Source: Costertonia aggregata | Lineage (GTDB): Bacteria; Bacteroidota; Bacteroidia; Flavobacteriales; Flavobacteriaceae | NCBI RefSeq assembly: GCF_013402795.1 | Contig: NZ_CP058595.1 | Span: forward strand, 1,089,501 to 1,153,500 | Direction of reading: 5' to 3' | Length of the DNA stretch: 64,000 bases | Shown: positions 9,930 through 62,365 of the stretch, one piece after another | Position numbering within the stretch: the first letter of the stretch is position 1 | Layout: each line of letters begins with the position of its first letter | Translations under genes and position numbers: made by a program | Notes under the pieces: generated by a model | The model's input: only the letters and a program-made list of their open reading frames with translations | Databases searched by the model: none | Told to the model about the DNA's origin: nothing

Positions 9930-10835
9930 TTAAAAAGAAAGTACTTGGTCAGTAAATTGTTTAAATACATCGCTGGCAATAGCTTTGTCAAATGCCTTAG
10001 CCGTTACCAAATCATATAGTTTGGCTTTCAATAACTGCCCAAATGACTTTTTATCTAAATTTGGAATATCATTACGTAACTCATCAAATTCATCAAAAAT
10101 AATTTGCTGGCCGATTCCTAATTTGTTGACTTCTTTGAGAACTTTTGCGATAAGTGTTTTTAACTCTTCCTCTGAATCACTAATTTTAGAATAGTCGGTA
10201 ACTTTCGCTTTTCTTGCTTGTTCAATATTCAATTTTCCTTCAAGAGTAAGTTTTGCATTCGTATTTTTAGCAGCCATAACATCTACGTAGCCCCTTATTT
10301 CCAGCATTTTAGCAAAGTCAAAATCCTCATTGTAGGTATCTAAACCTATGCCGTTCCCTTCAAGAATCCACTTTATAGAATAGTATTTGCCATCAGGGTA
10401 TAATTCATATAGTTTGGAAAGTATGAGATTTAGCTTTGCTTCAGTATCAAAGTTTCCTCTTTCTTCTAAATCAACCCCATCAGGACTAATCACTGCATCT
10501 GCTATGGATAGCATTTTCAAATAAGATTTAAGGCCATCAACCTCACCCTTTAAGGCTTGAATAGTATTTTTTGTTAGTTGAGCAACATTTAATTTGAACC
10601 CAGTATTGTAACCTCGGTGTTCTTTAAAGTCGTAAGCAAAATTTATGTTTTCAGGCTCAAAGGAAGTTTTTACAAAATTGATAACTGAATTTTCCCAAGT
10701 GAGCTTTGCATCCTTTAGCTCGTTAAGTTCATCTTCGGTTCTTGAAGTTTTATATTTATCCATTAGAGACTTCCCGTCAGAAATATACTCATCAACTTCA
10801 CTTTTGAAATCTTCCCATTTGACCTTTAAAAGCAT
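9930..10835 (-). CDS. P301, recombinase-associated protein of unknown function, copy 1
   Basis: 301 residues; I recognise no domain. Residues about 10-55 are strongly charged and likely coiled-coil. Conserved with copy 2 (58838-59743) are KTSFEPE-xx-NFxYxFK-xx-RGYNTG (about 55-80), NLILSKLYELY, SIKWILEGNGI, LTLEGKxxIEQxRKA, and the C-terminal block KLGIGQQIIFDEFDELR…KKSFGQLLKxKL…FKQFTDQxLxF. More than half of all positions are identical by eye. Both copies directly follow a tyrosine recombinase gene on the same strand and share the leader. No transmembrane or catalytic metal motif is seen. A role in integration, excision or element maintenance is an inference. Confidence 0.75.
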   Translation of the reverse strand: MLLKVKWEDFKSEVDEYISDGKSLMDKYKTSRTEDELNELKDAKLTWENSVINFVKTSFEPENINFAYDFKEHRGYNTGFKLNVAQLTKNTIQALKGEVDGLKSYLKMLSIADAVISPDGVDLEERGNFDTEAKLNLILSKLYELYPDGKYYSIKWILEGNGIGLDTYNEDFDFAKMLEIRGYVDVMAAKNTNAKLTLEGKLNIEQARKAKVTDYSKISDSEEELKTLIAKVLKEVNKLGIGQQIIFDEFDELRNDIPNLDKKSFGQLLKAKLYDLVTAKAFDKAIASDVFKQFTDQVLSF

Positions 10836-10861
10836 ACCTAATATTTTAGTTTGTAAAGGTA
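10836..10861 (-). promoter_or_regulatory. Conserved leader and -7 element of P301 copy 1
   Basis: On the minus strand TACCTTTACAA (from 10861) followed by ACTAAAATATTAGGT and ATG is nearly the same as in front of P301 copy 2 (TACCTTTACAA, then GCTAAACTTTTTGCGT). TACCTTTA fits a Bacteroidota -7. Conservation of non-coding bases suggests a shared promoter or operator, so P301 can be expressed apart from the recombinase. Confidence 0.5.
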
Positions 10862-10934
10862 ATAGAATGGAAATTCAAACTGTTAAAGTTTTGTTTGAAG
10901 ATTGAAACAGTTTATAAATTCTTAATGAGTTTTA

Positions 10935-12155
10935 TTAGCCAATTTTTGATTTGAGTAGTGCCATATCATCACTAACTTTTCTCTCGACCACCCTTGCATA
11001 GATTTGAGTTGTGGACAGTTTAGTATGCCCTAATAATTTAGATACAGTCTCTATGGGTACACCATTGCTCAAAGTCACCGTAGTGGCAAAAGTATGGCGT
11101 GCCATATGAAAAGTCAGGTTTTTTTTAATACCGCATAAGTCAGCTATTTCCTTCAAATAACTATTTAGTTTTTGATTGGATAACTTGGGCAAAAGACTTG
11201 ACGTATTGTTAGTTCGATAGTGGTCCTTATATTTGTCAATTAAGACAGCAGCTTTAGGAAGTAGCGGGATTTTGAACGGTGCACCTGTTTTTACTCTTTT
11301 TCCCATAATCCAAGGGCTACCATCTATGCCTAATACAATATTATCCTCACTTAATTGTACAATGTCAACATAAGAAATACCCGTATAGCAACTAAAAACA
11401 AACAAATCTTTCACGACCATAAGACGCTCTATTGAAGAGGACAAATCTTCAATACTTAGCAATTCAAAATCGGTAAGGAAACCACGTTCCTTCTTTTCAA
11501 TTTTCATTTTAAAATTTACAAATGGGTCTCTTTCCAACCATTTCATCCGATAGGCAAGAGTAACCATTCTTCTCAAACGCTTAATATGCTTCATTGCAGT
11601 ATTATTGCCAATCTTAGATTGACCACTTTTGGGTACATACGACCGAAGAAAATCTTCAAAGCCTACAATAAAACTGTATTCGAGATTGAAAAGTGGAATG
11701 TCATTCAGTTTATATTCCTTTAGGATATATTCCATCATATACCGTTGGCTGGTCTTATATTGGCCCATCGTATTCTTATGCAATTTGTGTTGCATCTTTT
11801 CATTATAGTAGTCAACAAGATTTTGAAAGGATAAACGTGTTTTATCTTCGCCTAAAAATTTAGCTTTTACCATTTGAGAAGTAAAAGGTATTTCATCCCT
11901 CTTGAAATCTTCGTAAATCCTATAAACCTTTGATTGTACTTCGTTCAAGTATAGATTGAGAACGCGGGAATCCTTATCGGTCCCATTTGCTCTCTGCAAT
12001 TTTTCATCCCAAGTCGAAATATTGATTTTCTTTTTGAGACTGATGTTGACGCGTTTACCGTTTAAGGTAATCCGAATGTAGATATTTGCTTTGTTGTTTA
12101 CGGCACGTTTTCCATACACCCAAAACAGTATAGAGAATGTTGATGAAGTTCGCAT
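10935..12155 (-). CDS. Tyrosine recombinase / integrase, CTnDOT-like
   Basis: 406 residues with the layout of Bacteroidota conjugative-transposon integrases: an N-terminal arm-binding domain (about 1-95, ANIYIRITLNGKRVNI), a core-binding domain (about 105-215) and a C-terminal catalytic domain. Seen are HMARH (H-x-x-R), LLGHTKLSTTQIYARV with the second His and the nucleophile Tyr. The usual first Arg (TGLRYxD) is Ser here (TGISYVD), as known for IntDOT. The gene begins about 230 bp from the tRNA-Asp 3' end and P301 follows 99 bp downstream. Confidence 0.9.
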   Translation of the reverse strand: MRTSSTFSILFWVYGKRAVNNKANIYIRITLNGKRVNISLKKKINISTWDEKLQRANGTDKDSRVLNLYLNEVQSKVYRIYEDFKRDEIPFTSQMVKAKFLGEDKTRLSFQNLVDYYNEKMQHKLHKNTMGQYKTSQRYMMEYILKEYKLNDIPLFNLEYSFIVGFEDFLRSYVPKSGQSKIGNNTAMKHIKRLRRMVTLAYRMKWLERDPFVNFKMKIEKKERGFLTDFELLSIEDLSSSIERLMVVKDLFVFSCYTGISYVDIVQLSEDNIVLGIDGSPWIMGKRVKTGAPFKIPLLPKAAVLIDKYKDHYRTNNTSSLLPKLSNQKLNSYLKEIADLCGIKKNLTFHMARHTFATTVTLSNGVPIETVSKLLGHTKLSTTQIYARVVERKVSDDMALLKSKIG

Positions 12156-12327
12156 AGTTGTCGTCTTTAATGGTTAAACATTCATTGAGACGAAAGTCAA
12201 ATCAACTATATCAATATGAGTAAGTTACGTTATTCTGTCAACATAATCGCAGATAAAAAAATATGTTGACGATTTGTGACCTTTTAGATGCAAATGATAC
12301 GAAATTATATGATTGCCCTAAAAACAT

Positions 12328-12361
12328 AAAACCTTGCAAATCATAGGATTTACAAGGTTTT
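12328..12361 (-). terminator. Terminator hairpin downstream of tRNA-Asp
   Basis: Fifteen-base arms AAAACCTTGCAAATC / GATTTACAAGGTTTT with a single mismatch and a 4-base loop. On the minus strand the hairpin ends in GGTTTTATGTTTTTA. It lies 24 bp after the tRNA 3' end and could also end transcripts from the island side. Confidence 0.7.
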
Positions 12362-12385
12362 GAGGGATTTTGATTACCCATTTAG

Positions 12386-12459
12386 CGGTCTGGACGGGAC
12401 TCGAACCCGCGACCCCCTGCGTGACAGGCAGGTATTCTAACCAACTGAACTACCAGACC
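12386..12459 (-). tRNA. tRNA-Asp(GTC)
   Basis: A 74-nt cloverleaf on the minus strand: acceptor GGTCTGG pairs with CCAGACC, discriminator G; D-arm GTTCAGTTGGTTAGAAT; anticodon stem CCTGC / GCAGG around loop CTGTCAC giving GTC; T-arm GCGGG-TTCGAGT-CCCGT. No CCA is encoded. Its 3' end faces the CTnDOT-like recombinase, as at a tRNA attachment site. Confidence 0.95.
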
Positions 12460-57322: not shown

Positions 57323-57380
57323 TACTCGAGGTGGGAATCGAACCCACACATCTTGCGATACTGGATTTTGAATCCAGCGT
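57323..57380 (-). other. Orphan 3' half of tRNA-Leu(CAA); predicted attachment site of the right island
   Basis: On the minus strand: anticodon stem CTGGA / TCCAG around TTCAAAA (anticodon CAA), a long class-II variable arm (TATCGCAAGATGT), T-arm GTGGG-TTCGATT-CCCAC, and acceptor 3' strand CTCGAGT plus discriminator A. Upstream of the anticodon arm no D-arm or 5' acceptor strand exists; the sequence becomes AT-rich. This is the usual product of integration into a tRNA gene. The intact tRNA-Leu is predicted at the far right end of the element. Confidence 0.8.
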
Positions 57381-57479
57381 ATTTGATGGTAAATTTAGCT
57401 AAATATACTTATAATCAACTGATTAATAAATATTTAATATTAATTGATTTCATTTAATATGATTTAAAATCAATAAATG

Positions 57480-57497
57480 TTGTACCTATGTTGTACC
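57480..57497 (+). repeat. Two TTGTACC direct repeats in front of the recombinase
   Basis: TTGTACC at 57480-57486 and 57491-57497, start-to-start 11 bp (one helical turn). They are 100 bp inside the tRNA junction and 37 bp before the recombinase start, where recombinase arm sites or a repressor site could lie. The stretch 57384-57479 is AT-rich and shows no gene. Confidence 0.4.
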
Positions 57498-57533
57498 AAA
57501 ATTGATTATCTTTATAATCTAAAATTCAATGGT

Positions 57534-58745
57534 ATGGCCTCAAATGCAAAAGTAGTTATAAGAAAGAAACCAAATAAAGAAGGGCTTTATCCTTTGGCAA
57601 TCCGCATAACCAAGAACCGTCGCTCAACATATCACTATGTTGGTCATTACATAGATTTAAAAGATTGGGATGAGAAGAACTTACGTGTTAGGAAATCCCA
57701 TACTAATGCTAACAGATTAAATAATTTGATTTCCACCAAGCTATTAGAGGCCAATAAAACACTAATAGATTTACAGTCAGATAAAAAAGATTTCTCTGCA
57801 AATCAAATAAAAGAAGCACTCTATTCAGAGTCAAAATCGAGTACTTTTTATGAAGTTGCAAGAGATTTTCTTTCCGAACTTGAATCCAATAAAAAGCTCT
57901 CTCAACTGTCTACCGATAAGGCTCGTGTTAACCACGTAATAAACTTTAATAAGTCAAAGCAGTTGACCTTTCAAGAAATAGACGAAGCCTTTTTGAGAAA
58001 ATTTAAGATTTATTTGAAAAAATTAAATCTCTCTGAAAGGTCGATAGTTAATAATCTTGTTGTTATAAGAACAATATACAACAGAGCGATAAAAATGGGT
58101 GTTGTTGATAGAAAATTTTATCCATTTGGCTCAGGTAAGATTAGGATAAAATTCCCTGAAACTGAAAAAATAGGATTGACCAAGAAAGAAATAAAGTCGT
58201 TTGAATCTGCTAAAAATCTTACTGAAAATGAAACTCACGCACGAAACGTATGGTTATTCAGTTTCTATTTTGCAGGTATCAGAGCTGCCGATTTGCTGAA
58301 AATTAGATGGTCAGATATTTATGATGATAGACTTCACTACCGTATGAATAAAAATTCCAAATTACTATCTCTCAAAATACCAGAAAAAGTCTTCCCTATA
58401 TTGGAATATTACAAATCTGAAAAACGGGACAATGACGATTTCGTTTTTCCCGAAATGAAAAAGGCAGATTTAAAAGATGCGAAAGATGTCTATGCCAAGA
58501 CCAAAACGGCTACTAAAAAGTTCAATAAATATTTGGTTGGGGTCGCCAAGAAAGCAAAAATTACCAAAAAGGTAACTATGCATATAGCTCGACACAGCTT
58601 TGGCCATATCTCAGAAGACAAAATTCCTATTAAAATGCTTCAAAAACTTTACAGGCATTCATCCGTTACTACTACAATAAAATATCAAGCCAATTTCATC
58701 CATAAAGATGCAGATGATGCTTTGGACAGCGTTGTCAATTTTTAG
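57534..58745 (+). CDS. Tyrosine recombinase / integrase, second subfamily
   Basis: I start at MASNAKVVIRKKPNKEG (57534, 403 residues); the frame opens at 57477. N-terminal arm domain (YPLAIRITKNRRSTYHYVGHYIDLKDW), SAM-like core-binding domain about 105-210, catalytic domain with GIRAADLLKIRWSDI (first Arg present, unlike the other recombinase), HIARHSFGHI, and LYRHSSVTTTIKYQ with the nucleophile Tyr. It presumably integrates the right island at tRNA-Leu. P301 copy 2 follows after 92 bp. Confidence 0.9.
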   Translation: MASNAKVVIRKKPNKEGLYPLAIRITKNRRSTYHYVGHYIDLKDWDEKNLRVRKSHTNANRLNNLISTKLLEANKTLIDLQSDKKDFSANQIKEALYSESKSSTFYEVARDFLSELESNKKLSQLSTDKARVNHVINFNKSKQLTFQEIDEAFLRKFKIYLKKLNLSERSIVNNLVVIRTIYNRAIKMGVVDRKFYPFGSGKIRIKFPETEKIGLTKKEIKSFESAKNLTENETHARNVWLFSFYFAGIRAADLLKIRWSDIYDDRLHYRMNKNSKLLSLKIPEKVFPILEYYKSEKRDNDDFVFPEMKKADLKDAKDVYAKTKTATKKFNKYLVGVAKKAKITKKVTMHIARHSFGHISEDKIPIKMLQKLYRHSSVTTTIKYQANFIHKDADDALDSVVNF

Positions 58746-58837: not shown

Positions 58838-59743
58838 ATGGTTTTAAAGGTCAAATGGATAGATTTTAAAAATAAAATTGAAGAACAGAAAGCTAAAGGC
58901 GAAGCTCTGGTCGAAAAATATAGGTCTTCAAGAACTGAAAATGATTTAGAAAGCCTAAAGGAAGAAAAGCAACGTTGGGAAAATGAGGTCATAGACTATG
59001 TAAAAACTTCCTTTGAACCTGAACATACAAACTTTAGATATGAATTCAAAGCCCAAAGAGGTTATAATACTGGCTTGAAATTAGGTATTGACCAAAGGAT
59101 TAAAAACATAATTCAAGACCTAAAAGATGAAATCAATGGTCTTGACTACTACTTGAAAATGCTATTCATTTCCGATGCAATAATAAGAGCTGAAGAAATT
59201 AATTTAGAAGAACGCAAGAATCTTGACACCGAAGGTAGGCTCGACCTCATTCTTAGCAAACTCTATGAGCTTTATGATGACAGATTATATCATTCTATCA
59301 AATGGATTCTGGAAGGCAATGGTATAAAGTTGAACAATCACGGCGAAGATTGGGATTATGCCAAAATGCTTGAAAACAGAAATCTTATTGATACTATTAC
59401 TACAAAAGATACAGGCGCCAGACTTACGCTGGAAGGAAAGTATGCAATAGAACAGTCAAGAAAAGCGCAAGTTACAGACTACACGAAAATTAGTAGTTCT
59501 GATGAAGAGTTAAAAGCACTTATTGAGGGTGTTCTAAAAGAAGTCGAAAAATTGGGAATTGGCCAGCAAATCATTTTTGATGAATTTGATGAGCTACGAG
59601 ATGATATTCCCAAGCTAAGTAAGAAATCTTTCGGGCAATTGTTAAAGTCAAAACTCGGGGATTTAATTGCTGCAAGGGCTTTAAACAAAACACTTGCCAG
59701 CGAGATATTCAAGCAATTTACCGACCAAATATTGCCATTCTAA
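58838..59743 (+). CDS. P301, recombinase-associated protein of unknown function, copy 2
   Basis: I start at the ATG at 58838 (MVLKVKW), matching the start of copy 1; a TTG two codons upstream also opens the frame. 301 residues like copy 1, with the same blocks: NFRYEFKAQRGYNTGLKL, DLILSKLYELYDDRLYHSIKWILEGNGI (split), KLGIGQQIIFDEFDELRDD, KKSFGQLLKSKLGDL, FKQFTDQILPF. N-terminal coiled-coil likely. It is 3 bp from the nuclease-like gene, so here it heads an operon of four. Function unknown. Confidence 0.78.
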   Translation: MVLKVKWIDFKNKIEEQKAKGEALVEKYRSSRTENDLESLKEEKQRWENEVIDYVKTSFEPEHTNFRYEFKAQRGYNTGLKLGIDQRIKNIIQDLKDEINGLDYYLKMLFISDAIIRAEEINLEERKNLDTEGRLDLILSKLYELYDDRLYHSIKWILEGNGIKLNNHGEDWDYAKMLENRNLIDTITTKDTGARLTLEGKYAIEQSRKAQVTDYTKISSSDEELKALIEGVLKEVEKLGIGQQIIFDEFDELRDDIPKLSKKSFGQLLKSKLGDLIAARALNKTLASEIFKQFTDQILPF

Positions 59744-59746
59744 TTT

Positions 59747-60523
59747 ATGAAAATACTGGCGAGACTCAAAAAAACAATTAGGACTTTCATTCAAAAAGAA
59801 CCACCGCCTGAATACGAGGTTACACAATTTGTTATTTCAGATAGACAACCTATTACAGGTGCATCAAAAATTTCATTTTTTGTGAATAATCCTCAGCCTG
59901 GTGCAAGCGTGACCAGAACCTTTGAAAATGAAGACGATGTTATTAATTGGTTGATGAGCAATGCCGACTTTAAACATATACTTTTCAAAAATCTATTTTC
60001 ATCATCCTCTGTCATCCATCATTGTGGCGTGAAAGAACCAATAACAGAACCTAAAAAGAAACCTGGCGACATTGACATCCTTCTTTACAAAGAAGGCAAT
60101 GAAAGCAATGCAGTTGGCATAGAATGTAAAATAGTAAAATCAGAATCCTTAGAAAATCAACCGCCAAAAATCAACAAGATTACAAGCGTTCAGAAAAAAG
60201 GGACAAAGCAAGCAGATGGTTACATAAACATAGGTTTTAGTAGGGTCTTTCTTATGGTCATATTGCTGGACGATGGCAGACACTATAAAAATCCAAATTT
60301 CGTCTTTAGAACAACACCAACTGAAGAATTGAAAGAACTGTATGATTTCGACTGGAACACAAAAATGAATACGGAAGTTGGAATAATCTATGCCTATGTC
60401 AATCAACTTACATCAAACCATATTAACCAGACGAAAGGTCTGGGTTTAAGGATTGAACGAGAAGCCAAAGAAAGAATTCAATGTGATGGTTTAACTGAGA
60501 AAATTAAAAATCTTAATTACTAA
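59747..60523 (+). CDS. PD-(D/E)XK-like nuclease candidate
   Basis: 258 residues. PGDIDILLY (Asp108, Asp110) followed 16 residues later by VGIECKIV (Glu126-Cys-Lys128) reproduces the D…ExK core with a strand on each side, as in restriction-type nucleases. A further ADGYINIGFSRVFLMVILLDDG strand-helix region fits the fold. The N-terminal 60 residues are basic and may bind nucleic acid. Not assigned to a named family. Second gene of the operon, 7 bp before the HNH-like gene. Confidence 0.6.
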   Translation: MKILARLKKTIRTFIQKEPPPEYEVTQFVISDRQPITGASKISFFVNNPQPGASVTRTFENEDDVINWLMSNADFKHILFKNLFSSSSVIHHCGVKEPITEPKKKPGDIDILLYKEGNESNAVGIECKIVKSESLENQPPKINKITSVQKKGTKQADGYINIGFSRVFLMVILLDDGRHYKNPNFVFRTTPTEELKELYDFDWNTKMNTEVGIIYAYVNQLTSNHINQTKGLGLRIEREAKERIQCDGLTEKIKNLNY

Positions 60524-60530
60524 GTATTAG

Positions 60531-61241
60531 TTGAAGAAAGTAGGAATTTGCAGAATCTGCGGTAAGTATGCAAAATTGACGTTCGAGCACGTTCCGCCAC
60601 AAAGTGCCTTCAATTCTAACCCTGTATTCTTTCAAAAGTCCGTCCATCTTCACGACAAAAAAAGTTTTCTATACGGTAAAAAAATTCGAAGTAATCAAGG
60701 TGCAGGTGGATATTACTTATGCAAATCTTGTAACAATCTCACAGGTAGTTACTATGGGGACAGCTACAAGAAATTCGCCTATATGGGAATGATGGCGCTG
60801 ACACATAGAATTTTGGCATCAAAAGATATTACTTTTGAATATGCCTTACAGCCACTAAACATTCTCAAACAGATTTTAGCAATGTTTATGGCGATAGATA
60901 CAAGCGACCAACTTTTAAATTTAGAAGGGCTTGCGGATTTTATTTTGGATAAGGATTCAAGGGCGCTTCCAGATAGCTTGAGAGTATTTGTTTACCACAC
61001 CATTACAAAACAAGTTAGAAATGGCTGGGGAATGGCAAGAACCGAAAAAGGGTTTCATCATCTTGGTGAAATTACCTTCCCACCATTTGGTGTTGTTTAT
61101 GCTTTAGATTCTGAACCCACACGAAACGATTTTTACGAAATAACAGATTTCAAAAATTTTAATTTTAATCAAACCGTTCAAGCGAGATTATCAATTCCTT
61201 TTCTTACACCTAAAACATATATTCCTGGACTGTACAATTAA
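60531..61241 (+). CDS. HNH-like nuclease candidate
   Basis: 236 residues from a TTG start at 60531, the only one upstream of the Cys motif. CRICG (Cys7, Cys10) and CKSC (near 65-68) form a zinc-ribbon pair framing LTFEHVPPQSAFN, the EHxPP version of an HNH motif, with CNNLTGSYYG as its end. The remaining 160 residues are helical and unassigned. 11 bp before the DUF4238 gene. A DNA- or RNA-cutting role is inferred from the motif. Confidence 0.6.
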   Translation: MKKVGICRICGKYAKLTFEHVPPQSAFNSNPVFFQKSVHLHDKKSFLYGKKIRSNQGAGGYYLCKSCNNLTGSYYGDSYKKFAYMGMMALTHRILASKDITFEYALQPLNILKQILAMFMAIDTSDQLLNLEGLADFILDKDSRALPDSLRVFVYHTITKQVRNGWGMARTEKGFHHLGEITFPPFGVVYALDSEPTRNDFYEITDFKNFNFNQTVQARLSIPFLTPKTYIPGLYN

Positions 61242-61252
61242 ATATTTAAGAT

Positions 61253-62365
61253 ATGGCAAAAAACGAACCCATCAAACAACACTACATACCACGTTCCTAC
61301 CTAAAAAATTTTGGTGTCGAAGCCAAAAAGGGCAACTATTTAGTAGATGCTTATAGACTTGAAGACGATTTGCTACTTGAAAAGATTAGCACGAAAAGTA
61401 TCTGTTTCAAAAAAAATCTTTACACAATTCCGAATGCTGAAGTTGATAGGAAATACGATTTAGAACACCATTACGCCGAACACGTAGATTCAGAATTTCC
61501 CAAAATATATAGACTACTTGTTGATGAAAGTGTGAAAATATTGACCCCTGAGCAAAAGAAACAGGTATTATACGTATGTCTATCTCTTTACTTTAGAACA
61601 CCAAGATTTCTTAATCATCAAAATGCCTTTACTGACCAAATTTTAGATAGAATGCTACTGTATGCAGACGAAAATGGCGAGGTGAAATTTACGTTTGAAG
61701 AAGAAAGACACGAGTTCAATATAAAGGATATAGATAAAGTTAGACAAGAATTTAAAGAGCGAAACAGGATTAAATTCTTGGTGCAGCACTTAGAGAAATG
61801 GAAAGAGTTTGTGGACTTTAAATATGATTGCACGATAAATGTCCATCGAATTAATGATAAAGATGCACCATTGATTACCTGCGATAATCCAGTATCTATA
61901 CGTGGTATAAAATCAACGCGATTCGAAGGCCTTTTCAATCCTGACTCAGTAATAACTTTACCGTTAGATACTCAATATTATTTGGAAATCTTTCCGAACA
62001 GCATTGCTGATGGTCAAACTATAATTCATAGAATGGTTCACGATAGGGATTATGTGTTTACGACCAACGCTATCATTCAGAGTAATGCTGAGAAGTTGAT
62101 AATTGGAAAGCCAGGAACAATAGAAAAACATTTTGAAATTCAATCAAGTTATGAAGAATCTGAAAATGGCGAACAATTTGTTGAAAAGGCAAAATTTAAG
62201 TTAGAGGAACTTCAAAAGTTTCATCAAATTTGTGAAAAGACGGGATTAACTTCGACTGAAACAATTGGTCAGCTTAAAAAGATGCTTAACCATAAATATT
62301 TCAAAGATGAAGACCAACTCATTAAGATGAAAAGGCTTTTAATTGCAACTGGACATTGGAAATAA
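61253..62365 (+). CDS. DUF4238 family protein
   Basis: 370 residues. N-terminal QHYIPRSYLKNFG (9-21) and PLITCDNPVSIRG (near 210) are the DUF4238 hallmarks. A long helical middle (PEQKKQVLYVCLSLYFRTPRFLNHQ) is seen. Biochemical role unknown; family members often occur with mobile or defence genes. Last gene of the recombinase-P301 run; an 82-bp gap follows. Confidence 0.78.
   Translation: MAKNEPIKQHYIPRSYLKNFGVEAKKGNYLVDAYRLEDDLLLEKISTKSICFKKNLYTIPNAEVDRKYDLEHHYAEHVDSEFPKIYRLLVDESVKILTPEQKKQVLYVCLSLYFRTPRFLNHQNAFTDQILDRMLLYADENGEVKFTFEEERHEFNIKDIDKVRQEFKERNRIKFLVQHLEKWKEFVDFKYDCTINVHRINDKDAPLITCDNPVSIRGIKSTRFEGLFNPDSVITLPLDTQYYLEIFPNSIADGQTIIHRMVHDRDYVFTTNAIIQSNAEKLIIGKPGTIEKHFEIQSSYEESENGEQFVEKAKFKLEELQKFHQICEKTGLTSTETIGQLKKMLNHKYFKDEDQLIKMKRLLIATGHWK

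What the first reader, a model, noticed from the sequence alone, without database searches (positions are those of the whole stretch)
58838..62365. Four-gene operon: P301, PD-(D/E)XK-like, HNH-like and DUF4238 proteins behind a recombinase
The genes are 3, 7 and 11 bp apart. Two carry nuclease-type cores (D108/D110…E126-x-K128; CxxC…EHVPP…CxxC), and the third is DUF4238, a family of unknown function. Placement directly after an integrase at a tRNA site is where cargo defence systems usually sit. None of the combinations matches a defence system I can name, so this is the best candidate for an undescribed antiviral or anti-plasmid system in the window.
Basis: partly seen in the sequence, partly recalled or inferred. 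Interest (0 to 1): 0.68.

Follow-up and report, generated by a model that had tools for sequence, protein, structure and literature searches.

The report
Mobile-element gene cassette, likely phage defence
Four tightly packed genes next to the integrase of a 58-kb conjugative element in a flavobacterium are a real, recurring cassette that most likely protects its host against phages or rival mobile DNA; one gene belongs to a family already shown to block a phage, and two of the others belong to no described family.

Summary
In detail: genes A (P301), B, C and D lie 3, 7 and 11 bp apart, 92 bp behind a tyrosine integrase. The window edge cuts a 58,396-bp integrative conjugative element (ICE) carrying metal-efflux genes, inserted in the anticodon arm of tRNA-Leu(CAA). 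The element brings a complete replacement tRNA.

The genes co-occur in many Flavobacteriaceae ICEs under purifying selection. They form a modular cassette, not a fixed four-part machine: int–A is constant, B follows in most cases, C and D are optional, and D can be swapped for a SEC-C protein. A second int–A pair lacking B–D sits in the same window at tRNA-Asp.

Defence is the best reading. D is DUF4238, a family with a phage-tested member (Rousset 2022), and its relatives here adjoin Thoeris, type IIG R-M and Mrr genes. The N-terminal 210 residues of A recur fused to a TIR domain. Nuclease activity of B and C is not shown: B's model failed (pLDDT 36), C is below the HNH cut-off and two relatives lack the expected His. 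D folds confidently (pLDDT 88) but matches nothing solved. Novelty lies in A, B and the arrangement.

The parts
57326..57379 (-). 3' half of the chromosomal tRNA-Leu(CAA) gene, left end of the element; holds the 18-bp att core TGGATTTTGAATCCAGCG at 57362-57379
   Evidence: Core repeated at G000:C1:1205258, 58,396 bp away; joined flanks give a complete tRNA-Leu(CAA)
57477..58745 (+). Tyrosine integrase of the element
   Evidence: Pfam PF17293, PF13102, PF00589
58746..58837 (+). Conserved non-coding leader of gene A (CTGTgAACATCTT ... CATTCnnnTACCTTTA), probable promoter/operator
   Evidence: 59-88% identical between elements with different integrases, against 29-65% at four-fold degenerate sites of A
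58838..59743 (+). Gene A (P301): N-terminal helical part plus probable winged helix (about 1-215) and C-terminal domain (about 219-296); proposed sensor/adaptor
   Evidence: No credible Pfam/PADLOC/PDB match; residues 1-209 align to the N-terminus of a TIR protein at E 4e-19; C-terminal domain found alone in other proteins; winged-helix call is my reading of the sequence
59747..60523 (+). Gene B: PD-(D/E)XK-like motif GDID(107-110)...IECK(125-128); proposed nuclease effector
   Evidence: Motif invariant in 13 sequences; 27 of 20,000 shuffles carry such a motif; fold not established
60531..61241 (+). Gene C: CxxC-EHVPP-CxxCN zinc-binding, HNH-like protein
   Evidence: HNH_5 at E 0.0029, below cut-off; relatives on plasmids and in P2-like phage pro147
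61253..62365 (+). Gene D: DUF4238 protein with an extra helical C-terminus
   Evidence: PF14022 E 5.2e-42; AlphaFold model pLDDT 87.8
9930..10835 (-). Second copy of gene A, without B, C or D
   Evidence: Profile A4 hit E 2.1e-151; ORF
10935..12155 (-). A different (406-aa) integrase directly upstream of the second A, next to tRNA-Asp at 12385-12459
   Evidence: ORF and tRNA scans; same int406-A layout at tRNA-Asp in L071-L073

Best explanation
The four genes are the variable defence cassette at the integrase end of a family of flavobacterial ICEs. Shown: the element, its attachment site, the conserved int-A(-B-C-D) order, modular gain and loss, purifying selection, D's membership of DUF4238, and A's N-terminal homology to a TIR-fused protein. 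Inferred mechanism: A is transcribed from its own conserved leader and acts as the sensor/adaptor, with a DNA- or protein-binding N-terminal part including a probable winged helix and a C-terminal interaction domain in the place where a relative carries a TIR effector. B is its dedicated effector, a PD-(D/E)XK-type nuclease attacking incoming or host DNA. C (HNH-like zinc protein) and D (DUF4238) are further, partly independent antiviral genes stacked in the same transcript, which would explain why they come and go and why D can be replaced by a SEC-C protein. The ICE gains because it protects its host from phages or competing elements, as SpbK on ICEBs1 does in Bacillus.
For: Co-occurrence of A-B-C in about nine distinct sequence types and about ten named genera plus MAGs, with D in most of them. 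A lies directly behind the integrase, or behind an HTH gene, in every A locus read, with at least three integrase types. dN/dS 0.04-0.28 for A-D. Cassette shuffling: against L030, dS is 1.83 for A but 0.36 for B. TIR fusion of A's N-terminus (TIR_2 E 7.8e-9, PADLOC spbK 2e-16, solved SpbK 4e-6). DUF4238 tested against T7. DUF4238 relatives directly follow Thoeris ThsB-ThsA (L111), overlap type IIG R-M (L094), or adjoin Mrr (L106) and a DUF6602 PD-DExK-like gene (L096). A DUF4238 gene lies beside the integrase of P2-like phage Smp131. The C relative of phage pro147 lies between tail sheath and tail fibre genes. ICEBs1 SpbK precedent.
Against: No phage or plasmid challenge data. PADLOC finds nothing in A-D, though it also finds nothing in a DUF4238 phage protein. 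B's fold is undetermined and it has no known family. Two C relatives lack the catalytic-type His. A persists without B (second copy in this window; truncated B in L071-L073), so A may have its own role, for example in element regulation. The TIR fusion is a single protein found in one genome.
Confidence: 0.6

Rival explanations
1. A is an element-maintenance gene: a winged-helix regulator or accessory of the integrase that binds the conserved leader and controls excision or operon expression. B, C and D are unrelated hitch-hiking cargo, only some of it defence.
For: A is the only constant partner of three or more integrase types and is kept where B-D are missing or broken, still with low dN/dS (dN 0.25, dS 2.9 for the second copy against L073). 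The leader is unusually conserved and has an ACCTTTA...TAAAGGT inverted repeat around the start codon.
Against: A lies downstream of int on its own leader. Its N-terminus occurs fused to a TIR domain outside this layout, and its C-terminal domain occurs on stand-alone proteins away from integrases, one of them near AbiEii.
Confidence: 0.22
2. The cassette is for competition between mobile elements (exclusion of other ICEs or plasmids), not for phage defence.
For: It is confined to ICEs of one bacterial family in the genomes searched and is shuffled among them. A nuclease-plus-sensor layout suits plasmid restriction.
Against: Two A-bearing elements coexist in this genome. DUF4238 has tested anti-phage activity elsewhere.
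Confidence: 0.12
3. The genes are non-defence accessory functions of a metal-resistance ICE, with no common role.
For: The element carries large metal-efflux operons directly downstream, and the fold of D matches nothing solved.
Against: No metal-efflux domain in A-D. The cassette also occurs without the HYC/CusA pair directly behind it (L025, L030). Defence neighbours of DUF4238 and TIR fusion of A's N-terminus.
Confidence: 0.06

Closest known systems
DUF4238 single-gene anti-phage system (Rousset et al. 2022, PMC9122126; a DefenseFinder system)
   Same: D is an above-cut-off member of PF14022 and lies behind a mobile-element integrase
   Different: D sits in a four-gene operon, has an extra helical C-terminus and was not compared directly with the tested E. 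coli protein; no activity data
SpbK of ICEBs1 (TIR protein encoded by an ICE, PMC8880864) and TIR proteins of that type
   Same: ICE-borne cargo; a relative of A has A's N-terminus fused to a TIR domain resembling SpbK
   Different: A itself has no TIR domain; another C-terminal domain is in its place and separate B-D genes follow
Bacteroidota conjugative elements of the CTnDOT type
   Same: Tyrosine integrase, MobB relaxase, TraG/TraM/TraN-type proteins and a coupling protein
   Different: Inserts in the anticodon arm of tRNA-Leu(CAA), supplies a complete replacement tRNA, carries metal efflux and the A-D cassette; tra scores below NCBI's cut-offs
PD-(D/E)XK restriction-like nucleases (Mrr, DUF6602)
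   Same: D-x-D ... E-x-K core in B; such genes adjoin DUF4238 in L106 and L096
   Different: No detectable profile similarity of B to those two proteins

Membership tests
DUF4238 (PF14022), gene D | Score above Pfam's curated cut-off over most of the model | tested here: met
   144.6 bits against 27, model 1-279 of 281
DUF4238 (PF14022), gene D | Family residues of the QHY-P--YL and S/CDNP motifs | tested here: met
   H10, L17, R115, D211, P213, P237 invariant in a 17-sequence alignment
DUF4238 anti-phage system | Protection against phage | not testable with these tools
   Only a relative was tested, against T7
PD-(D/E)XK nuclease, gene B | D ... (E/D)-x-K catalytic residues, conserved | tested here: met
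   D108, D110, E126, K128 invariant in 13 sequences; 27 of 20,000 shuffles and about three unrelated families among 483 ORFs carry a similar motif
PD-(D/E)XK nuclease, gene B | Restriction-endonuclease-like fold | tested here: inconclusive
   AlphaFold model pLDDT 35.6, 13 similar sequences
HNH nuclease, gene C | Score above the cut-off of an HNH family | tested here: not met
   HNH_5 17.9 bits against 27.5
HNH nuclease, gene C | Zinc-knuckle Cys pairs, catalytic-type His and Asn | tested here: inconclusive
   C7, C10, C64, C67, N68 invariant; H20 is Arg in L023 and L024
TIR defence protein (SpbK-like), gene A | TIR domain | tested here: not met
   No TIR match in A; only its N-terminus is shared with the TIR protein of L078
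ICE, host element | Integrase, relaxase, coupling protein, conjugation genes, att repeats and restorable target | tested here: met
   excision itself not testable here
Known systems in PADLOC 2.0.0 | Match to a component model | tested here: not met
   Only DpdC at E 0.04 for A; none for B, C, D

The most novel reading that the evidence does not exclude
A and B form an undescribed two-gene immune system of flavobacterial ICEs: A is a modular sensor whose C-terminal domain, occupying the place of TIR in a relative, recruits or activates the B nuclease, and further antiviral genes (C, D, SEC-C protein) are plugged in behind as interchangeable effectors.
Probability: 0.3. Interest if true: 0.7.

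Novelty: new variant of a known kind. Interest (0 to 1): 0.5.

Why it matters
If true, a widespread family of flavobacterial ICEs carries an interchangeable immune cassette at a fixed position behind the integrase, with two protein families (A and B) that current defence catalogues miss and a DUF4238 protein whose fold, confidently predicted, resembles nothing solved. That gives a fixed locus to mine for new antiviral genes and a way to study how DUF4238 works. The tRNA-Leu(CAA) insertion with a carried replacement tRNA is a testable case of an element that both breaks and replaces a host tRNA gene.

Tried and rejected
Structure of B from 13 close homologues: pLDDT 36, so no fold inference. 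Foldseek and VIA-align with the D model: best PDB E-value 0.17, best Z 4.7, confined to a helical tail, so no functional transfer. Sequence search of A, B, C and D profiles against PDB: nothing credible; B's weak isocitrate-dehydrogenase hit is a chance DxD...ExK match. A and B in viral contigs, B in phages and plasmids, A in plasmids: none. A's N-terminus alone against PADLOC: none, so the defence link through L078 rests on the fused TIR part. B compared with the Mrr and DUF6602 neighbours of DUF4238: no similarity at profile level. Considered and rejected: a single obligatory four-component machine, because subsets are common. Rfam on the leader: nothing relevant. The defence neighbourhood of DUF4238 was counted by hand on about 25 loci without a background control.

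Full report
Check of the observation. The gene in front, 57477-58745, is a tyrosine integrase. D is DUF4238 at E 5.2e-42. B carries D108, D110, E126, K128. C carries CxxC, EHVPP, CxxC.

The setting. The window is G000:C1:1089501-1153500 of a 3.91-Mb genome in one contig. Upstream of the integrase lies only the 3' half of a tRNA-Leu(CAA). Its 18-bp anticodon-arm sequence TGGATTTTGAATCCAGCG recurs 58,396 bp away, followed by the 5' half. Joining the flanks gives a complete tRNA-Leu(CAA), so this is the empty site. The element brings a complete tRNA-Leu(CAA) of its own just inside its far end. It encodes a MobB relaxase, TraG-, TraM- and TraN-type proteins, a coupling protein, ParB, CusA-type RND and copper P-type ATPases. 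It is therefore an ICE, with the four genes at its integrase end. Near-identical copies of this end (1 mismatch in the 3,528-nt operon, none in the integrase, 10-13 differences in the 151-nt stretch that holds the chromosomal tRNA half) sit in Zeaxanthinibacter, an uncultured Aquimarina and a MAG, which points to very recent transfer.

Co-occurrence and modularity. A scan with C gave 19 loci. A and C occur together in every one that is not cut by a contig end; B accompanies them in all of these, broken in L025 and with a frame break in the MAG locus L019. A less biased search with A in 397 Flavobacteriaceae genomes gave 12 genomes with full-length A; in those whose surroundings I read, every A is behind an integrase. 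Layouts seen: int-A only (window 9930-12155, at tRNA-Asp); int-A with a truncated B (L071-L073); int-A-B followed by metal genes (L074-L077); int-A-B-C (L031, L033); A-B-C-D (window, L018, L021, L022, L027, L029, L030); A-B-C-SEC-C protein (L023, L024, L026); A-(broken B)-C-D (L025). The integrases belong to at least three types, about 22% identical between two of them. In L022 and L030 an HTH gene precedes A. Gene-by-gene distances disagree: against L030, dS is 1.83 for A but 0.36 for B, so the cassette is shuffled among elements. dN/dS is 0.04-0.28 throughout.

Leader of A. The 90-95 nt before A are 59-88% identical between loci, whereas four-fold degenerate sites of A are only 29-65% identical. 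Constant features are CTGT...ATCTT, CATTC and TACCTTTA, and an ACCTTTA...TAAAGGT inverted repeat spanning the start codon. TACCTTTA resembles the Bacteroidota -7 box (my knowledge). A promoter or operator is the likeliest reading.

Gene A. No library names it. Its residues 1-209 align at 28% identity (E 4e-19; hhalign 98.5%) with the N-terminus of a 482-residue protein in another flavobacterium (L078:4089-5537) whose next domain is TIR (TIR_2 7.8e-9; PADLOC spbK 2e-16; solved SpbK 4e-6). Residues 130-215 read like a winged helix (my inference). Residues 219-296 recur on 170-250-residue stand-alone proteins in about a dozen genomes; one of these lies close to an AbiEii gene (L083). A is therefore built like a sensor plus exchangeable C-terminal domain.

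Gene B. The motif is invariant in 13 sequences and rare in shuffles (27 of 20,000) but not unique among natural ORFs. The structure prediction failed. B is a probable, unproven nuclease, with convincing relatives found only beside A.

Gene C. C belongs to a broad family of small zinc-knuckle proteins borne by mobile elements: relatives lie on plasmids of Listeria, Rhodococcus, Vibrio, Lactiplantibacillus and others, next to a recombinase in Listeria and an integrase in L088, and in phage pro147 between tail sheath and tail fibre genes, a position I recognise as the moron site of P2-like phages. HNH_5 is below cut-off, and L023/L024 have Arg for the His. Nuclease activity is open.

Gene D. DUF4238 is found in about 8-9% of sampled Bacteroidota genomes and in none of 14 controls. 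One DUF4238 gene from a P2-like prophage hotspot gives strong resistance to T7, molecular function unknown (PMC9122126). In the loci fetched here DUF4238 directly follows ThsB-ThsA of Thoeris (L111), overlaps a type IIG R-M gene (L094), and lies within 50 bp of an Mrr gene (L106) and a DUF6602 PD-DExK-like gene (L096). The model of D (pLDDT 87.8) has no PDB match below E 0.001. Its only good structural match is a 298-residue protein of P2-like phage Smp131, whose length fits Smp_43, itself a DUF4238 protein beside the phage integrase.

Interpretation. The best reading is a modular defence cassette carried by ICEs, with A as sensor/adaptor, B as its likely nuclease effector, and C, D or the SEC-C protein as further antiviral genes. 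The ICE-borne TIR protein SpbK, which protects Bacillus from SPbeta (PMC8880864), shows that ICEs do carry such genes. Shown are the element, the conserved and modular gene order, selection, DUF4238 membership and the TIR-linked N-terminus. Inferred are sensing, nuclease action and protection. The main rival is that A is an element regulator and the rest is mixed cargo.

Novelty. D and the principle are known. A, B and this arrangement are, as far as the libraries and papers searched show, undescribed. I rate it a new variant of a known kind.

Noticed in passing
window 57326-57379 and G000:C1:1205149-1205275 (L002, L005): The ICE splits tRNA-Leu(CAA) in its anticodon arm and carries a complete tRNA-Leu(CAA) of its own (83% identical over the matched stretch) at its other end; no further match was found in the genome, so the host probably depends on the element's copy while it is inserted.
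   Followed up: partly
window 9930-12459, minus strand: A second, shrunken element: 406-aa integrase plus a copy of gene A beside tRNA-Asp, with no B, C or D.
   Followed up: yes
L078:4089-5537: Protein with gene A's N-terminal part fused to a TIR domain, in a genome (G670) that also has an int-A-B locus; a candidate defence protein in its own right.
   Followed up: partly
L111:135-2460: DUF4238 gene immediately downstream of Thoeris ThsB and ThsA genes, as a possible third operon member.
   Followed up: partly
L023:6799-8028, L024:6799-8028, L026:6779-8014: A 409-411-aa protein ending in a SEC-C motif takes the place of DUF4238 behind gene C; in L104 a DUF4238 domain is itself followed by a SEC-C-like CPCGQGRKYKNCC stretch in one protein.
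   Followed up: no
L071:6246-6560, L073:5935-6249, L010:1519-1858: Gene B broken off at about residue 120, just before E126-x-K128, and followed by a remnant of the C-terminus of the tRNA-Leu type integrase: trace of recombination between two elements.
   Followed up: partly
L016, L017, L020: Practically identical ICE ends (1 mismatch in the 3,528-nt operon) in different flavobacterial genera, so the element has moved very recently.
   Followed up: partly
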